From the NCBI GenBank assembly GCA_016934035.1, contig JAFGTP010000043.1:1-64000 (forward strand): a stretch of DNA of 64,000 bases, read 5' to 3'. Each line of letters opens with the position of its first letter. The stretch's first letter is position 1. Below the pieces are notes generated by a model, which was given only the letters and a program-made list of their open reading frames with translations, ran no database searches and had not been told where the DNA came from. The DNA comes from Fidelibacterota bacterium. GTDB taxonomy: Bacteria; Fidelibacterota; UBA2242; JAFGTP01. A program made the translations under genes and the position numbers. Shown here one piece after another: positions 22,918 through 48,566 of this stretch.

Positions 22918-23010
22918 CGGGAAAGCCTGGGAGTCGAACCCAGCTCCCCGGTCGTTCCGGGGACAACGATTTTGAAGATCGCGGCAATCACCGGATTTGC
23001 CTGCTTTCCC
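22918..23010 (-). tRNA. selC: tRNA-Sec (anticodon TCA)
   Basis: Minus strand GGGAAAGCAGGCAAATCCGGTGATTGCCGCGATCTTCAAAATCGTTGTCCCCGGAACGACCGGGGAGCTGGGTTCGACTCCCAGGCTTTCCCG: 8-bp acceptor stem, long D stem, anticodon loop CTTCAAA, long variable arm, TTCGACT T-loop; CCA not encoded. Confidence 0.95.
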
Positions 23011-39817: not shown

Positions 39818-40630
39818 TTATTTCTCTTCATTGATTTCCACGCAACCAAAACCGCGATCTCCTTCTTCACCAAAACCACATTCATAACCAATTCTGATCA
39901 ATTCCGGATCTGCCTCAATAACAAAAGGAGCTTCAAAAGCCTTGACTTTTTCATCGTTTTCAAAATGAATCAGTTTACTGATCTTGCCTTTATTCTCATT
40001 GATGTATTTATTATCAAATTTAAAGAAAATATGGCTGTTCCCTGAATAAAGATTGCCATTGAGCATTTCATATTTATCTATCAGTGATTGCTTGAGTTTA
40101 TTAATAAATTTTTTTCTTTCTTTGTATTTCATGTAATTATAAAAATGCTTTTTGACAGTATTAAATTGTGTTTTCCAATTGGTACATACTGCTATTGGAG
40201 ATTTTGTAATGAAATGCATTCTGTTTTTAAACTCGGGGATGGCCAGTTTTTCCAGAAAATTGACTGTAAATTTTTTTTCTTCATTTTCAAATCGAAATAC
40301 AAAATGATAATTTTTAAATATTTCTACAAAATAAATAAAATAATGGTCTGGAAACGGTGCAGAAAAATAGAGTTCAGCCCGCTGGACATTATAAAAACCC
40401 AGTGAATTAATATTCCTGGGAAAAAAATTGAACTTTGAATAGGTATAATTTTTTTCCTCTATGATAATAGTTTTAAGATTTTCGAGGTGCTGCGGGGGGA
40501 TTGAATCGGATTTTTCCAGGTTTTCAATACCAATTACAAGTGCATAACGAATGGAGTTGTTAAGTTGTAAATGATAATTAAAAGGAACGGTTTGTTCCTC
40601 ATTACAGGATGTTTTTATAATAAATCTCAA
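39818..40630 (-). CDS. Cas6-like CRISPR endoribonuclease (solitary)
   Basis: C-terminal glycine-rich loop GYECGFGEEGDRGFGCVEI; INKLKQSLIDKYEMLNG; LRF-type first strand and FNYHLQLNNSIRYAL. TTG at 40630 behind AAGGAG is proposed; the ORF track extends to ATG 40681. Confidence 0.75.
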   Translation of the reverse strand: MRFIIKTSCNEEQTVPFNYHLQLNNSIRYALVIGIENLEKSDSIPPQHLENLKTIIIEEKNYTYSKFNFFPRNINSLGFYNVQRAELYFSAPFPDHYFIYFVEIFKNYHFVFRFENEEKKFTVNFLEKLAIPEFKNRMHFITKSPIAVCTNWKTQFNTVKKHFYNYMKYKERKKFINKLKQSLIDKYEMLNGNLYSGNSHIFFKFDNKYINENKGKISKLIHFENDEKVKAFEAPFVIEADPELIRIGYECGFGEEGDRGFGCVEINEEK

Positions 40631-40820
40631 CTGTGAAATTTCTCCTTGCTGTGTCTGATTATAAAAATGCCGATGTAGCAAAATTTAAAAATTATTTAAG
40701 CAATAGCAAACATTTTTATATCTTATAATTTTTAGCATTTCAAGATAATTTTCAAGTATATTGAAATATTTCTAAAAAAAGTATTTTTTTCGACTGATAA
40801 TACAAAAATTATTAATGTTT

Positions 40821-40872
40821 TTTACAATAAAATTGGCCGAATACAACTGATAGCGGCCAATTTTATTGTAAA
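40821..40872 (-). terminator. Long hairpin downstream of trpA, probable operon terminator
   Basis: 17-bp perfect arms TACAATAAAATTGGCCG (40823-40839) / CGGCCAATTTTATTGTA (40854-40870), extendable by two A-T pairs, 14-nt loop, 8 bp from the trpA stop. Confidence 0.65.
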
Positions 40873-40880
40873 GATACAGG

Positions 40881-41675
40881 CTATTTTTGTGCGGAAATTT
40901 GTTGTAGATAATTTTTTAATTCTTTCTGCATTTTTGGAATATCGGACAATGAATTCTGGATCTGTTTTATGATGGCACTGCCAATAATTCCACCATCGGC
41001 ATGAACCTGCTTGAGATTTTTAAAATGGGATGGATCAGAAATTCCAAAACCAACATTGATTGGCAGATTGGATACCTGGCGAATTGTTTTAATCGTCTCT
41101 GCAAGATCGATGCGTGCCTTTTCATGTGTGCCGGTGACCCCCAATCTGGATACCAAATAGATAAAACCTGTTGTCATTTGACAAATTTTGTCGATGCGTT
41201 CTTTTGGTGTAACGGGTGTAATAATGAACACGGTTTGAATTCCATATTTTTGGGCAATGACCCGGTATTCTTCAGATTCCTCGGGCGGAATATCCGGAAT
41301 TAATACTGAATTGATTTTTAATTCCTGCAATCTCTTATAAAAATTTTCTGTACCGTAAGTAAAAACCAAGTTTGCATAGACCAGAAGTCCGATAGGAATT
41401 GGACTGAATTTTCTGATTTTTTCTAATATTGTTAGACATTTTTCGGTGTTAATGTTATTATGCAAAGCAATATTATTGGCTTCCTGTATGATAGGTCCGT
41501 CAGCAACCGGATCTGAGAATGGAAAACCCAATTCCAGGATATCGGCACCGTTTTCAATCAAAGTTTGAATGACAGAAAGACTGGTTTCAAAATTGGGAAA
41601 CCCTAATATAGTAAAAGGAAGAAATGCGATTTTGCCTTCCTTTTTCAGGTTTATATAGACATTATGATAATTCAT
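40881..41675 (-). CDS. trpA: Tryptophan synthase alpha chain
   Basis: FTILGFPNFETSL, LELGFPFSDPVADGPIIQ, LIPDIPPEE, GFIYLVSRLGVTG, VGFGIS. Confidence 0.97.
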   Translation of the reverse strand: MNYHNVYINLKKEGKIAFLPFTILGFPNFETSLSVIQTLIENGADILELGFPFSDPVADGPIIQEANNIALHNNINTEKCLTILEKIRKFSPIPIGLLVYANLVFTYGTENFYKRLQELKINSVLIPDIPPEESEEYRVIAQKYGIQTVFIITPVTPKERIDKICQMTTGFIYLVSRLGVTGTHEKARIDLAETIKTIRQVSNLPINVGFGISDPSHFKNLKQVHADGGIIGSAIIKQIQNSLSDIPKMQKELKNYLQQISAQK

Positions 41676-41714: not shown

Positions 41715-42902
41715 TTAAGAAACATTACGACTTTCATATTTTATCACACTCATTAGATCTTTATCACCTCGACCAGATAAATTGATTAGAACAATTTCAC
41801 CGGGTTGATAGGTTTTATAGTTTTTAATGACATAACCAATGGCATGTGAAGATTCCAGTGCGGGAATGATGCCTTCTTTTTCTGAAAGCATTTTAAATCC
41901 TTTGACTGCCCAGTCATCATTCAGGTAATCATATTTTGCTCGACCCGTTTCCGCAAGGTGGGTGTGTTCCGGTCCGATAGCACAATAATCCAATCCGGCA
42001 GAAATGGAATAGGTATTGCGGATTTGACCTAAATTTTCCTGCAGTACATAAGTCTTTGTTCCCTGAAAAATACCGGGTTTGGAATTTATAGTGTCGCACA
42101 TGCGGGAAGCGTGTTTTCCGGATTCAATCCCCTTGCCACCGGCTTCCACACCAATCAATCGCACTTTTTTATCATCCAGAAATCCTTTGAAAATGCCCAT
42201 TGCATTGCTGCCACCACCAACACAGGCCACAACATAATCCGGCAGTTTTTTTGCAATATTCAGCATCTGTTGACGGGCTTCAATGCCTATAATACTTTGA
42301 AAATAGGTGACCATTTCAGGGAATGGATGGGGGCCCAGTACTGAACCGAGTAAATAATGAGTGGATTCAACGCTACTGCTCCAGTCGCGCAGGGCTTCAT
42401 TGATAGCGTCTTTTAGTGTCCGTGTTCCTGAAACCACCCGATGGACTGTCGCCCCAAGAAGTTCCATGCGGTGAACATTTATGGCCTGACGTTCACAATC
42501 CACTTCACCCATGTATATCTCACATTTCAGGCCAAGCCGGGCACAGGCTGTCGCTGTGGCAACCCCGTGTTGTCCGGCTCCGGTTTCTGCAATAATTCGT
42601 GTTTTGCCGAGTTTTCTGGCCAGGAGGGCCTGACCCAGAGCGTTGTTAATTTTGTGTGCGCCGGTGTGGTTTAAGTCTTCACGTTTGAGATAGATTTCAC
42701 AATTGAGTTCTTTGCTCATATTAGCACAATAGGTTAGGGGTGTAGGACGGCCGGAATAATTTTGCAGCATTGTATTTAATTCTTTTAAAAACCTGGAATC
42801 TTTCTTGATTTCCTCAAAAGATTTTTCCAATTCCAGGATTGCAGGCATCAATAATTCTGAAATATACTGGCCACCCCAATTTCCATAATATCCTTTTTTC
42901 AT
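41715..42902 (-). CDS. trpB: Tryptophan synthase beta chain
   Basis: [26 protein letters not shown] (PLP lysine), [33 protein letters not shown]. Confidence 0.98.
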
Positions 42903-44278
42903 TTTAGTCCTTTTAGTATTTGATCAATTTTCTTATAATCTTTAATTCCGGGTGAATTTTCCACTCCGGAACTGATATCTAAAACATCGGGTTTATAGCC
43001 CAGAATATCGGTATAGTTTTCCGAATTGATACCCCCGGCCACAAACAGATTTCTGTGTTTTATTTTTTCAATATTTTTCCAGTTAAAAGATTGTCCCGTG
43101 CCGCCATATACATTGGGACTGTAAGTATCCATGAGAACATATTTTGCCTGACAATTATTGATTTGGTTGATCTTGATTTGATCCAATTGGTTTTCAATTC
43201 GAAAAACTTTGATAACCCTGTCCTGAAAATTATAATAAAAGGATTCCGTTTCATCGCCATGTAGTTGAGCCAGGTCCAACTGACATCTGTTCATAATATC
43301 CAAGACTCTTTTCGGGTCTTCATTAACAAAAACACCCACTAATTTAACTTGGGGAAAAAGGTCTTTGATCTCAGTGGAAATGGCAGCGGAAACTCTGGGG
43401 TCAGTGTACCTTTTTGACTTCTGACTGAATATAAATCCCAGATAATCAACTCCGTTTTCACCACAATATATTGCATCTTTTAATTGGGTAATACCACAAA
43501 TCTTGATATCAGGTTTGAATAACGAGGCTATCCTTGCGGATGGATTTTCATTCAACATCAGTGACGTTCCCACCAGAATTGCATCGGCAAAATCTATGAT
43601 TTTCTTTACATCATTCCGGGTATTGATGCCGGATTCTGTGACAATGATGTTAGATTTTTTTCGCAGTTTTTCTGAAAGTTTTTTTGTCGTATCAAGGGAG
43701 ATTGTGAAATCTTTAAGATTTCGGTTGTTTATTCCTGCAATATCAACAATGGAGGGTAATTTTACAATTTCGTCTTCATTGTGTACTTCCACCAGGCAAT
43801 CCATTTTCAAGGATTTGGCGATATTAATAAAATGCTCCATTGTCTCTGTCGTCAATTCTGAAGCAATCAGCAAAATAGCATCAGCGCCAAAATAGCGAGC
43901 TTCATAGATTTGATATTCATCGATGATAAAATCTTTGCAGAGAACAGGTTTTGTGGTTTGCAGGCTGATTTGAAGCATCTCTTCCAGAGTTCCGCCAAAA
44001 TATTGATAATCTGTAAGAAAAGAAATCGCACTAACAAAGTGGTTTTGGGAATAAATTTTTACAATTTCAAAAATATTTACATCATTACGGATTGTTCCTT
44101 TGGAAGGAGATTTTCGTTTGACTTCAGCAATAAGATTCAGTCCGTGTCCTTTACTAATTGCCATTTTGAAATCACGAACAGAAGGTGAAAGGCCTGCTTT
44201 TATTTTTTCAATTGACACAAAAGATTTTCTTTGGTCGACTTCTTTTCTCTTGTTTTGGATTATTTCGTCAATAATCAT
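42899..44278 (-). CDS. trpCF: Bifunctional indole-3-glycerol phosphate synthase / phosphoribosylanthranilate isomerase (TrpC-TrpF fusion)
   Basis: Trp[40 protein letters not shown]; Trp[45 protein letters not shown]. Confidence 0.95.
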
Positions 44279-45273
44279 GCAGCACCTTTTAAATCTTTCA
44301 ATTTTTCCAAAGCCAGACCAGAATCAATTATGGCAGCGGCCTTATTGATACCATCGATGGGGGAGGTGGCTATATTGCCTAAAACCAGGGCAAAAGCGGA
44401 ATTGAGCAAAACAATGTCACGTTTCGGGCCTTTTTTACCGGATAAAATTTCAATGACCATTTTCGCATTTTCTTCTTTATCTTTTCCCATGATATCCCGG
44501 CTGGTTGCTTTCGGAAGGCCAAATTCTTGAACATCAATGATATAGGTCTGGACATCACCGTTCCTTAATTCGGTAATTTTGGTTTTTCCAAGTGTCGAAA
44601 TTTCATCCAATCCGCCCTCACCATGAACAACCATTGCCCGCTTCACACCGATATTTCCTAATACCCGGGCCATGATTTCTGTAAGTTCCGGATCAAAAAC
44701 CCCCAGTAGTTGCGTATTGGCATTGGCCGGATTTGTCAGTGGGCCTAAAATATTGAAAACCGTACGAACGGCAAGTCCTTTCCGAACAGGCATCACATAT
44801 TTCATGGCTTGGTGTAAAAAGGGGGCGAACATAAATCCAAAATTTTTTTTCAGAATGGAATCTGCAACAGAATTGACATCCTCTTCAAGATTGATTCCCA
44901 GCATTTCCAGCACATCTGCACTGCCGCATTTTGACGAGGCGCTGCGGTTGCCATGTTTGGCTACCTTTATGCCGGCTGCTGCAGCGATTATACCGACAAT
45001 TGTAGAAATATTGAAGGTATGCAGGCGACTTCCTCCGGTGCCGCAACAATCAAAGAGTACATCTCCATTGACAGTGACTGGAACTTTGGTGGATTTTTCA
45101 CGCATGACTTTTGCAAAGCCAGTTACTTCTTCTTCCGATTCACCTTTGGCTGCCAGTGCTGTCAAATAGCCTGCAATTTGAATTTCTGACAATGTACCGG
45201 TCATTATTCGGGTCATTAATGTTTCTGCTTCTGATTGAGATAGATGCTGCCCGCTGATTATTTTATCCAACAT
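44275..45273 (-). CDS. trpD: Anthranilate phosphoribosyltransferase
   Basis: DCCGTGGSRLHTFNIST, KHGNRSASSKCGSADVLE, LGPLTNPANANTQLLGV, VVHGEGGLDE. Confidence 0.97.
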   Translation of the reverse strand: MLDKIISGQHLSQSEAETLMTRIMTGTLSEIQIAGYLTALAAKGESEEEVTGFAKVMREKSTKVPVTVNGDVLFDCCGTGGSRLHTFNISTIVGIIAAAAGIKVAKHGNRSASSKCGSADVLEMLGINLEEDVNSVADSILKKNFGFMFAPFLHQAMKYVMPVRKGLAVRTVFNILGPLTNPANANTQLLGVFDPELTEIMARVLGNIGVKRAMVVHGEGGLDEISTLGKTKITELRNGDVQTYIIDVQEFGLPKATSRDIMGKDKEENAKMVIEILSGKKGPKRDIVLLNSAFALVLGNIATSPIDGINKAAAIIDSGLALEKLKDLKGAA

Positions 45274-45844
45274 CTTTAATTCTCCTAATTAAATTGTTAA
45301 TAAGTGAGTTGCCGCTGGCGGTCAGAATGCTTTCTGGATGAAACTGGACACCACTGATATTATATTTTTCATGATATATCGCCATGGGTATATCCCGGTG
45401 GTTTGCTGCTACAATAAATCCTTTTGGTATTGATTCTGCATATAGGGAATGATAGCGACCGACATGAATGGGGTTGGGTAATCCTTTAAAAATATTCTGA
45501 TTATTGTGCGTTATAATACTGGATTTTCCATGCAATACTTCATAACAACGGGATACTTTTCCACCAAATTCTTCGACAATACACTGAAAACCCAGGCATA
45601 CTCCGAAAACGGCAATATCCCTGTGGTATTTTCGTATGACCGCTTTGCATATTCCGGCATTGGACGGGTTGGATGGACCAGGGGAGATAACGATGAGTTT
45701 AAAATCCGTTTCCGTGATGACTTTCTCAATTTCTTTCATGGAAATATTGTTTCGATATATCGAAACATCGCATCCGATTTTTTCAATTTCATCTACAAGA
45801 TTATAGGTAAAGGAATCAAAATTATCGATCATCAGAATGTTCAT
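45263..45844 (-). CDS. trpG: Anthranilate synthase component II (glutamine amidotransferase)
   Basis: NILMIDNFDSFTYNLVDE, ISPGPSNP, FGVCLGFQCI, GVQFHPESILT. Confidence 0.96.
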   Translation of the reverse strand: MNILMIDNFDSFTYNLVDEIEKIGCDVSIYRNNISMKEIEKVITETDFKLIVISPGPSNPSNAGICKAVIRKYHRDIAVFGVCLGFQCIVEEFGGKVSRCYEVLHGKSSIITHNNQNIFKGLPNPIHVGRYHSLYAESIPKGFIVAANHRDIPMAIYHEKYNISGVQFHPESILTASGNSLINNLIRRIKDVG

Positions 45845-47448
45845 GATTTTCCTCCTCGGGACAATGCCAGAACACTGGCTCTGGATTTATTAATGGTTTC
45901 TTCCCATTCTTTTTCCGGTATCGAATCATAGACAATGCCTGCACCGACCTTGATATATATATGGCCGTTTTTAAATCGCATGGAGCGGATATTTATGCAG
46001 GAATCAAAATTACCGTCCGGGGTAAAATAGCCAACAGACCCACCATAATAACCCCGTTTTCCGGTTTCATAGAGGCGAATCAATTTCATGGCTTCGATTT
46101 TTGGTGCACCGGTCAAGGTACCCATATTCATCGAAGCCACATAAGCATGGAGTGCATCATATTCTTTTTTCAACTGCCCGCTGACATTGGATACCAGGTG
46201 CTGAACATGGGAATATTTTTCAATGATGAAGGGTTCATCAACATAGCGTGAACCTTTTTGACAAACCCGGGCAACATCGTTTCTGGCCAGGTCAATCAAC
46301 ATGGTATGTTCAGCCTGTTCCTTGGGGTCGAGTTTGAGTTCCAACTCATATTTAGAGTCCAGGTCAGAATCAATTTTACCATTAATATACCCTCTGGGTT
46401 TTGTCCCGGCTATGGGGCGAATTTCCAGAATTTTTTCATCTTTCCCCTCAACACGAATGAACATTTCGGGACTGGAACCCAAAATACATCCATCGCTGGT
46501 ATTGAAATAAAACATATAGGGGCCGGGATTGATCGTGCGTAAATTTTTATAGGCTTTATAAGGAGGAATTTTTGTATCGCCAATCAGCGTACGGCAAAGG
46601 ACGGCCTGAAAAATATCGCCAGCAAGAATATGCTCTTTCAATTGGCTGACTTTTTTAAGAAAATTCTCTTTTTCTGTGTCGGTAATCCATTCGATTTCTT
46701 CATCAGTTTCATCAAAATAAGAAGGGAAACCGGTATTTTTGCATAATTGCAGACATTCTTCGTATCGGTTCAATTTTTTGATGCAGTCCAGATAAACATC
46801 ATCTCTGCTTTGGTTCGATATCAAGGCGTTGGCTACGAATTTCATTTCGTTTTTGATATGGTCCATGATAAAAAAATTATCAACGTAGATCATCTCATAA
46901 TCATGGTCGCCAATGATATCTGTTTTTGAGGGTGGTAAATCTTCAAACTGATCGATTATATCATAACTGATAGCCCCAAAAATTCCGCCGGCCGGATTAA
47001 CACCATTTGAAATTGGAATAAAGCGATTATTAATGACCCTCAAAATATCAAAATGGGTTCGTGCTTTTAACCGTTCTCTTTCATCGGTCTGGGATTTGTC
47101 AGGTATCAGTGTGCCGCTGATTTTTTCTTTTGTGATTACAAGATCATCGCAAAATATCAGATCATCAACAATTTCAGCCAGGAAATATTCACCGGTTTTA
47201 TTGAGTGCTTTAATAACAAAATTTTCTCCTTTACCTTTGATCTTCAAACAAGGATTAATTGCACCGATGCTTTTTTCACCGTATTTAGAAATGGTATTAG
47301 CAGATTCCAGCAAAATACAGTTTGTATCTTGGCCGAAATTTGTCAAATGACCAAAAAAAAGTACCGGATCAATGTTAATCTTCTGACTTTTGATGATTGG
47401 AACCAGATCACCTTTTTGGGCATGCTTAATTCGATTAAAATCTTCCAT
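45841..47448 (-). CDS. trpE: Anthranilate synthase component I
   Basis: Chorismate-binding motifs: ILEIRPIAGTKPRG, EHTMLIDLARNDVARV, GTLTGAPKIEAMKLI, IKVGAGIVYDSIPEKEWEE. Confidence 0.97.
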   Translation of the reverse strand: MEDFNRIKHAQKGDLVPIIKSQKINIDPVLFFGHLTNFGQDTNCILLESANTISKYGEKSIGAINPCLKIKGKGENFVIKALNKTGEYFLAEIVDDLIFCDDLVITKEKISGTLIPDKSQTDERERLKARTHFDILRVINNRFIPISNGVNPAGGIFGAISYDIIDQFEDLPPSKTDIIGDHDYEMIYVDNFFIMDHIKNEMKFVANALISNQSRDDVYLDCIKKLNRYEECLQLCKNTGFPSYFDETDEEIEWITDTEKENFLKKVSQLKEHILAGDIFQAVLCRTLIGDTKIPPYKAYKNLRTINPGPYMFYFNTSDGCILGSSPEMFIRVEGKDEKILEIRPIAGTKPRGYINGKIDSDLDSKYELELKLDPKEQAEHTMLIDLARNDVARVCQKGSRYVDEPFIIEKYSHVQHLVSNVSGQLKKEYDALHAYVASMNMGTLTGAPKIEAMKLIRLYETGKRGYYGGSVGYFTPDGNFDSCINIRSMRFKNGHIYIKVGAGIVYDSIPEKEWEETINKSRASVLALSRGGKS

Positions 47449-47466
47449 AAATTCTCCTATAAATGA

Positions 47467-47503
47467 AAAAAGCCGCTAGACCCTTTCGGGTTAGCGGCTT
47501 TTA
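47467..47503 (-). terminator. trp attenuator terminator hairpin
   Basis: Minus strand AAAAGCCGCTA-ACCCGAAAGGGTC-TAGCGGCTTTTTT between the leader ORF and trpE, ~20 nt before the trpE ATG. Confidence 0.9.
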
Positions 47504-47530
47504 ATTTTTATGTTTTTTATTAAATGTTAA

Positions 47531-47626
47531 TTAAAGCGGAACCTTCAGGGTTTCAGAAATAGTATACTGCCAGTTCCACCACCAGTTATTTGAATTAAGA
47601 TTGATATTTGTTCTACTTTTTATCAT
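47531..47626 (-). CDS. trpL: trp operon leader peptide, 31 aa, MIKSRTNINLNSNNWWWNWQYTISETLKVPL
   Basis: ATG at 47626, stop TAA 47531-47533; codons AAC TGG TGG TGG AAC TGG; followed by terminator and trpE. Confidence 0.88.
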   Translation of the reverse strand: MIKSRTNINLNSNNWWWNWQYTISETLKVPL

Positions 47627-47714
47627 GGGCTTAATTTAGAATTCCATTTTATTTAACAAAATAATTTTTTTATAAAGTGATTAAAAAAAATGGTTTGATG
47701 AGGAAAAACCAAAA

Positions 47715-48566
47715 TCAAATTCCTTTTACTCTAATAGTTCCATTGGTTGTTACTAGATCCACTTCACCTTCTCCATTACCCAAAATTCCTGAAACAGAAT
47801 ATTTACTCTGTTGGAAATTACTGAATGTCAAATTGTTGGTTGAAATTGAACCATTGGTAATTTTGGCTGAAAATTCTGCTGAGGTTGATTGGGGAATATC
47901 TAGATTTATGTTGCCATTGGTGACATAAATCTTACAAACTCCTTGTTTGGATAATGTGCTTTCACCATCAATGTTGCCATTGGTCAGGTTTATATCGGAA
48001 CTGCCACAATGCGAATCAATGAAAATATTGCCATTGGTCAGGTCAACTGTCTGAGCCCCCTCAAGATTATTGATTTCAATATTTCCATTTGTCAATCGAA
48101 TATCTGTGGAATTTCCCATAGAATCTATGGAGACATTGCCATTGATATTGAGGATTTCGGAATAAAAAATATAGGGTAATTTAATATGGTATTCGACTTC
48201 ATAGCTTCTGCCATGAGTTTCATCAGGTTGGATCGTGCGTACTAATATTTTTTCATTCCATTGCAACCACTCAACTTCCAGAAGATCCAGATGCTCTTCT
48301 GCATCGGCCCTGGAATCTGATTTTACTTTGCGGGTACCGAGAATGTGGATCAGGCTGTCTCCTGATGTACCGGAAATTTCAATATTTCCATTGATTCCCT
48401 GAATTTCAAAAGATGAAAATCCTTCTGCATCTATTTCAAAAGAAAAGTTTTCCTCTACCGAAAAATTCGTATTATGCACACAATTATTACAATCCAGTAT
48501 CCTTTCGCATCGTGATAAAAATCCGATAAAAACAATAAATAAGATAGAGTGTTTGATTTTCCACAT
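47715..48566 (-). CDS. Lipoprotein-like DUF4097-type beta-solenoid protein
   Basis: N-terminal signal with FLSRCERI lipobox-like Cys; repeated (L/V)TNGNI units typical of the DUF4097/adhesin-like fold. Confidence 0.75.
   Translation of the reverse strand: MWKIKHSILFIVFIGFLSRCERILDCNNCVHNTNFSVEENFSFEIDAEGFSSFEIQGINGNIEISGTSGDSLIHILGTRKVKSDSRADAEEHLDLLEVEWLQWNEKILVRTIQPDETHGRSYEVEYHIKLPYIFYSEILNINGNVSIDSMGNSTDIRLTNGNIEINNLEGAQTVDLTNGNIFIDSHCGSSDINLTNGNIDGESTLSKQGVCKIYVTNGNINLDIPQSTSAEFSAKITNGSISTNNLTFSNFQQSKYSVSGILGNGEGEVDLVTTNGTIRVKGI

What the first reader, a model, noticed from the sequence alone, without database searches (positions are those of the whole stretch)
47467..47626. Unannotated trp leader peptide and attenuator upstream of trpE
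The minus strand encodes MIKSRTNINLNSNNWWWNWQYTISETLKVPL* with four Trp codons in five positions (TGG TGG TGG AAC TGG). It is followed by a GC-rich hairpin with U-tract (AAAAGCCGCTA...TAGCGGCTTTTTT) and then trpE. The leader's 3' part (GGTTCCGCTTTAATT) can pair imperfectly with the terminator 5' flank (AATTAAAAGCCGCTAACC), giving a plausible antiterminator. This is the architecture of ribosome-mediated attenuation known from enteric bacteria, here controlling a complete trpEGD(CF)BA operon in what does not look like an enteric genome. The 31-aa ORF is not in the supplied ORF track.
Basis: partly seen in the sequence, partly recalled or inferred. Interest (0 to 1): 0.72.

Follow-up and report, generated by a model that had tools for sequence, protein, structure and literature searches.

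The report
Tryptophan operon attenuator in Marinimicrobia
A short, tryptophan-rich reading frame and a transcription stop signal in front of the tryptophan genes of an uncultured bacterium (Marinimicrobia) most likely form the classic switch that turns the operon on when tryptophan runs short, and similar switches sit in front of the same genes in related phyla.

Summary
On the minus strand a 31-codon ORF (47626-47531) with Trp codons WWWNW is followed by a strong intrinsic terminator (about 47502-47466), then trpE-trpG-trpD-trpCF-trpB-trpA. Its 3' end can pair either with the Trp-codon region or with the terminator's 5' arm, the usual mutually exclusive arrangement. The genome is a Candidatus Neomarinimicrobiota. 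All four relatives with an orthologous full-length trpE carry a WWW leader ORF at the same place; three of the four also have a terminator and a much stronger antiterminator than the window (shuffle p=0.001 each, window p=0.039). One (G016) has no recognisable terminator. WWW leaders also precede a different, non-enteric trpE type in other Marinimicrobia, and Trp-rich leaders precede trpE in all 30 best Bacteroidota matches. None of the Marinimicrobia or Bacteroidota loci tested reaches Rfam's Trp_leader cut-off. These leader ORFs lack a Shine-Dalgarno sequence. In Bacteroidota a textbook promoter predicts a 5' UTR of about 0-9 nt (near-leaderless); for the window this is likely but weaker. 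Ribosome-mediated attenuation is the best reading (0.9): a new member, in a new phylum, of a known kind. The same genome has two His leader/terminator modules in series before hisG.

The parts
47633..47659 (-). candidate promoter: TTG at 47659-47657, 18 nt, TAAATT at 47638-47633; predicted transcription start at or next to the leader ATG
   Evidence: TANNTT at -12..-16 from the ATG in 6 of 9 Marinimicrobia leaders, shuffle mean 0.99, p=0.0006; a broader promoter scan was not significant for Marinimicrobia; prediction only
47531..47626 (-). trp leader ORF (31 aa, WWWNW), no Shine-Dalgarno
   Evidence: WWW ORF at the same place in orthologous loci
47570..47584 (-). regulatory Trp codons TGG TGG TGG AAC TGG
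47572..47580 (-). strand 1 (overlaps the Trp codons), pairs with strand 2 in the minimum-energy fold
47528..47552 (-). strand 2 (3' end and stop codon of the leader ORF)
   Evidence: 2:3 duplex dG -15.0, shuffle p=0.039
47480..47507 (-). strand 3 (terminator 5' arm and flank), pairs with strand 2 as antiterminator
47466..47502 (-). intrinsic terminator (3:4 hairpin plus U-tract)
   Evidence: dG about -22.8
47454..47458 (-). Shine-Dalgarno AGGAG of trpE
   Evidence: read from sequence
45841..47448 (-). trpE, enteric type (anthranilate synthase component I)
   Evidence: NF010079 476 bits, cut-off 471
45263..45844 (-). trpG
44275..45273 (-). trpD
42899..44278 (-). trpCF fusion
   Evidence: NF006945 411 bits, cut-off 380
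41715..42902 (-). trpB
40881..41675 (-). trpA

Best explanation
A ribosome-mediated transcription attenuator controls the trpEGD(CF)BA operon. Shown by sequence and computation: the leader ORF with clustered Trp codons, the terminator, and the alternative 1:2, 2:3 and 3:4 pairings. Inferred: when charged tRNA-Trp is scarce, a ribosome stalls at the Trp codons and covers strand 1. Strand 2 then pairs with strand 3, and RNA polymerase reads through into trpE. When Trp is plentiful the ribosome runs on to the stop codon inside strand 2, so strand 3 is left to form the terminator and transcription stops. Also inferred: the ribosome starts on the nascent 5' end with little or no 5' UTR and no Shine-Dalgarno sequence.
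For: Leader ORF and terminator exactly in place. WWW leader ORFs at the same place in all four orthologous loci with full-length trpE, of which three have terminators. 2:3 duplexes: p=0.001 for G003, G008 and G015, 0.001-0.002 for L008 and L010, window p=0.039; Fisher over 12 non-independent loci about 1e-15. With a ribosome at the Trp codons the terminator arm is paired upstream with mean probability 0.62 in the window and 0.88 in G008 and G015; with a ribosome at the stop codon it falls to 0.00. WWW leaders also precede the other trpE type in Marinimicrobia, and Trp-rich leaders precede trpE in the 30 best Bacteroidota matches. No TrpR or TRAP gene was found in the genome and no T-box, riboswitch or other cis-regulatory Rfam match in the window. 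The same genome and many relatives carrying hisG have His-rich leader/terminator modules before it, so the mechanism looks general there.
Against: No transcription start, translation or expression data. The window's own 2:3 pairing is the second weakest by p value of the 12 loci (0.039). Equilibrium folding does not separate 'no ribosome' (0.50) clearly from 'stalled' (0.62), so the protector role of 1:2 rests on folding order during transcription. G016 keeps the WWW ORF but has no terminator-like hairpin (best dG -1.1).
Confidence: 0.9

Rival explanations
1. The hairpin is only the terminator of the upstream DUF4097 gene (47715-48566), and the 31-codon ORF is a chance frame.
For: The upstream gene points the same way and ends only about 90 bp before the leader.
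Against: WWW ORFs sit in the same place in four orthologs, before another trpE type and in another phylum. The ORF 3' end is complementary to the terminator arm in these loci.
Confidence: 0.04
2. The leader regulates trpE, but the peptide or the terminated small RNA also acts in trans, as described for peTrpL/rnTrpL of Sinorhizobium meliloti (compatible with the best explanation).
For: A leaderless trpL mRNA released by attenuation is the form that does this in S. meliloti (PMC7298713).
Against: Peptide sequence outside the Trp run is poorly conserved between genera, which argues against a peptide function. All trp genes here are in one operon, so no separate trp target in trans is needed.
Confidence: 0.08
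3. The terminator is controlled by another sensor (T-box, TRAP-like protein) or the operon by TrpR.
For: Such systems control trp genes in Firmicutes and enterics (established knowledge).
Against: No T-box or other Rfam regulatory match in the window; no Trp_repressor (PF01371) and no TrpBP (PF02081) match in the genome (genome 88.6% complete). The Trp codons would be unexplained.
Confidence: 0.02

Closest known systems
Enteric trpL attenuator (Escherichia coli/Vibrio type; Rfam RF00513 Trp_leader)
   Same: Leader ORF with tandem Trp codons, strand 1 overlapping the Trp codons, 2:3 antiterminator, 3:4 terminator, trpEGD(CF)BA order.
   Different: Sequence model not matched (20.7 bits against a cut-off of 41). 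No TrpR gene found. No Shine-Dalgarno before the leader. Leader is 31 instead of about 14 codons.
Sinorhizobium meliloti trpL/rnTrpL
   Same: Leader mRNA that starts at its own ATG (PMC7298713).
   Different: Different phylum and different trp gene organisation; the leaderless start is only predicted here.
Actinobacterial trp attenuators (Corynebacterium, Streptomyces; PMC1262725)
   Same: Classical attenuator outside Proteobacteria.
   Different: Different phylum and different operon; no sequence comparison made.
Leader-peptide attenuation clues in Flavobacterium psychrophilum (PMC9723704)
   Same: Related phylum; amino-acid biosynthesis operons; no Shine-Dalgarno.
   Different: The main text does not mention trp; Marinimicrobia are outside its scope.

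Membership tests
Ribosome-mediated trp attenuator (trpL type, as a mechanism) | Short ORF with clustered Trp codons just upstream of trp biosynthesis genes | tested here: met
Ribosome-mediated trp attenuator (trpL type, as a mechanism) | Intrinsic terminator between leader ORF and first structural gene | tested here: met
   dG -22.8 with U-tract
Ribosome-mediated trp attenuator (trpL type, as a mechanism) | Antiterminator that excludes the terminator | tested here: met
   2:3 dG -15.0, p=0.039 in the window; p=0.001 in three orthologs
Ribosome-mediated trp attenuator (trpL type, as a mechanism) | Protector 1:2 pairing reached by the stalled ribosome | tested here: inconclusive
   present in the minimum-energy fold and overlapping the Trp codons, but not decisive at equilibrium
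Ribosome-mediated trp attenuator (trpL type, as a mechanism) | Leader transcribed, translated and Trp-responsive | not testable with these tools
   needs experiment
Rfam RF00513 Trp_leader (sequence family) | Covariance-model score at or above 41 bits | tested here: not met
   20.7 bits; four of five gammaproteobacterial loci tested reach 73-77 bits, none of the Marinimicrobia or Bacteroidota loci does
T-box (Rfam) | Covariance-model match upstream of trpE | tested here: not met
   only two tRNA genes match in the window
TRAP (TrpBP) control | TRAP gene in the genome | tested here: not met
   no PF02081 match; control genome B. subtilis matched
Leaderless leader mRNA (S. meliloti trpL-like) | Transcription start at the leader ATG | tested here: inconclusive
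   TANNTT 12 nt upstream; 6 of 9 Marinimicrobia, p=0.0006; broader scan not significant for Marinimicrobia

The most novel reading that the evidence does not exclude
Across the Bacteroidota-Marinimicrobia group, amino-acid operons are controlled by a class of near-leaderless, Shine-Dalgarno-free attenuators. The ribosome loads directly on the emerging 5' end of the transcript, which could replace the polymerase pause that synchronises ribosome and polymerase in E. coli. In several members strand 1 is the extreme 5' end of the ORF itself rather than the Trp codons.
Probability: 0.35. Interest if true: 0.6.

Novelty: new member of a known kind. Interest (0 to 1): 0.42.

Why it matters
It extends trp attenuation by leader peptides to Marinimicrobia, where I found no earlier report in the library available. 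It also suggests that the mechanism is common in Bacteroidota, which largely lack Shine-Dalgarno sequences. That gives a testable question: how a first ribosome is placed in time on a nascent mRNA with almost no 5' UTR. It also points to short peptides and terminators that Rfam's Trp_leader model misses.

Tried and rejected
Transfer of leader and operon together from Gammaproteobacteria: TrpE of this clade is sister to gammaproteobacterial TrpE (100/99, on long branches), and the fused TrpCF points the same way. But most other proteins of the operon are not clearly closer to gamma than to Bacteroidota or other Marinimicrobia homologues, and the leader lacks the TrpR-operator and Shine-Dalgarno context. 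Left open. A 5'-codon strand 1 for the window: AAAGUAGAAC pairs with GUUCCGCUUU, but only at p=0.18, so I keep the Trp-codon strand 1 for the window. A leader before ilvB in the same genome: no convincing candidate; coding sequence precedes it closely. Literature search for Marinimicrobia trp attenuation: nothing relevant. Merino 2008 and Lopatovskaya 2010, which from memory may list Bacteroidetes leaders, could not be read (not held; cited only).

Full report
What is there. The minus strand carries, in order: a possible promoter, a 31-codon ORF (47626-47531) with Trp codons WWWNW, a terminator (about 47502-47466), a Shine-Dalgarno AGGAG and trpE (47448-45841), then trpG, trpD, fused trpCF, trpB and trpA. 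The 221-nt leader region folds better than shuffles (z -3.1). In-frame TGGTGGTGG is rare: 90 hits in the 4.2 Mb genome, or about 3e-4 for one ORF of this size.

Whose genome. The closest named relative is a Candidatus Neomarinimicrobiota MAG (JAIPJV010000090.1, TrpE 63% identical). Of 245 genomes of the phylum searched, five including the window's own have this TrpE at E below 1e-100; a sixth (G001) has a copy truncated at a contig edge.

Comparative test. In all four other genomes a WWW ORF lies just upstream of trpE: MNMNPKDIKLNNWWWQWLADKKSAFRIPVVT, MKANSENNNKKFWWWQINVILSGSLIS, MKASPKHISKIFWWWHNSHTLSGSPIFLVN, MKANSKHINNNFWWWHNSHARSGSPIFLIN. Three of the four have a terminator after it; G016 has none that I can find (best hairpin -1.1 kcal/mol). 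WWW or WFWW leaders with terminators also precede a different trpE type in four other Marinimicrobia, and Trp-rich leaders precede trpE in Bacteroidota and Ignavibacteria. Among the 30 best matches to a Bacteroidota TrpE, all 30 have a leader with at least two Trp residues, 28 with three or more. These 30 are the closest of 206 matching genomes, so they are not a random sample of the phylum. The gammaproteobacterial loci serve as positive control: most show a Trp leader, and four of the five tested match Rfam RF00513.

Alternative structures. I measured the duplex between the RNA downstream of the Trp codons and the terminator 5' arm against dinucleotide shuffles: window -15.0 kcal/mol, p=0.039; G003 -23.2, G008 -25.8, G015 -25.0, all p=0.001; the other Marinimicrobia and Bacteroidota loci p=0.001-0.053. 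The sequences are related, so the combined value (about 1e-15) overstates independence, but the pairing persists while the sequences change. In the window the minimum-energy fold pairs the Trp codons (nt 47-55 from the ATG) with nt 84-92, and the terminator forms. With a ribosome at the Trp codons the terminator arm is mostly paired upstream (0.62); with a ribosome at the stop codon this disappears (0.00). Without a ribosome the equilibrium value is 0.50, so default termination without translation depends on order of folding, which I could not simulate properly.

Translation start. None of 9 Marinimicrobia or 34 Bacteroidota leaders has an SD-like motif; 4 of 10 gammaproteobacterial ones do. 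In Bacteroidota the best TTGAC...TAnnTTTG match lies with its first T 10-21 nt before the ATG in all 34 (27 of 34 within 10-18; shuffles 10.2 on average, at most 19), predicting a 5' UTR of roughly 0-9 nt if the first T is at about -12 (established consensus). For comparison, 5' UTRs under 10 nt are about 3.7% in Bacteroides thetaiotaomicron (PMC7366714) and leaderless mRNAs 5.5% in Flavobacterium psychrophilum (PMC9723704). For Marinimicrobia the same broad scan is not significant (4 of 9). A narrower test chosen after inspection finds TANNTT at -12 to -16 in 6 of 9, p=0.0006, so this part is suggestive only. A leader mRNA starting at its own ATG is known in Sinorhizobium meliloti (PMC7298713).

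Evolution. TrpE of the window clade is sister to gammaproteobacterial TrpE (100/99) and separate from TrpE of other Marinimicrobia and Bacteroidota; TrpCF is fused as in the gammaproteobacterial loci compared. The gene order EGDC(F)BA is shared by both types. Attenuators thus stand before two unlike trpE types in one phylum: either the leader was kept when the operon was exchanged, or it arose or arrived more than once. I cannot decide.

Generality. Upstream of hisG in the same genome lie two His-rich leaders in series, each with a terminator: MRKKSMKRNLTHWHHHHSNYRLM and MKNNTNNHHIHHHGHWISG. The second has a strong antiterminator (p=0.0015), the first a weaker one (p=0.08). Many relatives with hisG show a single His leader. 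Attenuation by leader peptides therefore looks like a general habit of these bacteria. No TrpR or TRAP gene was found.

Known or new. A 2010 survey stated that, to its authors' knowledge, leader peptide systems had been shown only in Proteobacteria and Actinobacteria, and added Firmicutes (PMC2965389). A 2021 study reported strong clues in F. psychrophilum (PMC9723704). From memory, Merino 2008 and Lopatovskaya 2010 may list Bacteroidetes cases; neither could be read here. I therefore file the window element as a new member, in a new phylum, of a known kind.

Noticed in passing
L215:1196-1460 (G000 contig C12, upstream of hisG): Two His leader ORFs in tandem, each followed by its own terminator, before hisG in the window's own genome: a serial double attenuator. 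In the relatives scanned only single leaders were seen.
   Followed up: partly
L218-L246 (hisG loci of Marinimicrobia): His-rich leader peptides with terminators precede hisG in many Marinimicrobia that have hisG; many end in a shared GTG-type motif (e.g. RRGTGMR) that overlaps the likely antiterminator strand.
   Followed up: partly
L003 / L112 (G016 trp leader): The WWW leader ORF is intact but no terminator-like hairpin lies before trpE; the attenuator may be decaying or work by another route.
   Followed up: partly
L045-L051, L146-L165 (Bacteroidota and Ignavibacteria trp leaders): Many leaders share a (G/E/K)TYY motif near codons 6-9; in some its RNA pairs with the ORF 3' end (strand 1 at the extreme 5' end), in others the reason for conservation is unclear.
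   Followed up: no
window 39818-40681 (-): A cas6 endoribonuclease gene (TIGR01877, 68 bits) lies directly downstream of trpA; no CRISPR array or other cas genes were looked for.
   Followed up: no
window 22919-23010 (-): Selenocysteine tRNA gene (RF01852, 61.8 bits) directly beside a DNA polymerase I gene.
   Followed up: no
window 40822-40866: Near-perfect palindrome ACAATAAAATTGGCCG...CGGCCAATTTTATTGT just after trpA, a likely bidirectional terminator ending the operon.
   Followed up: no
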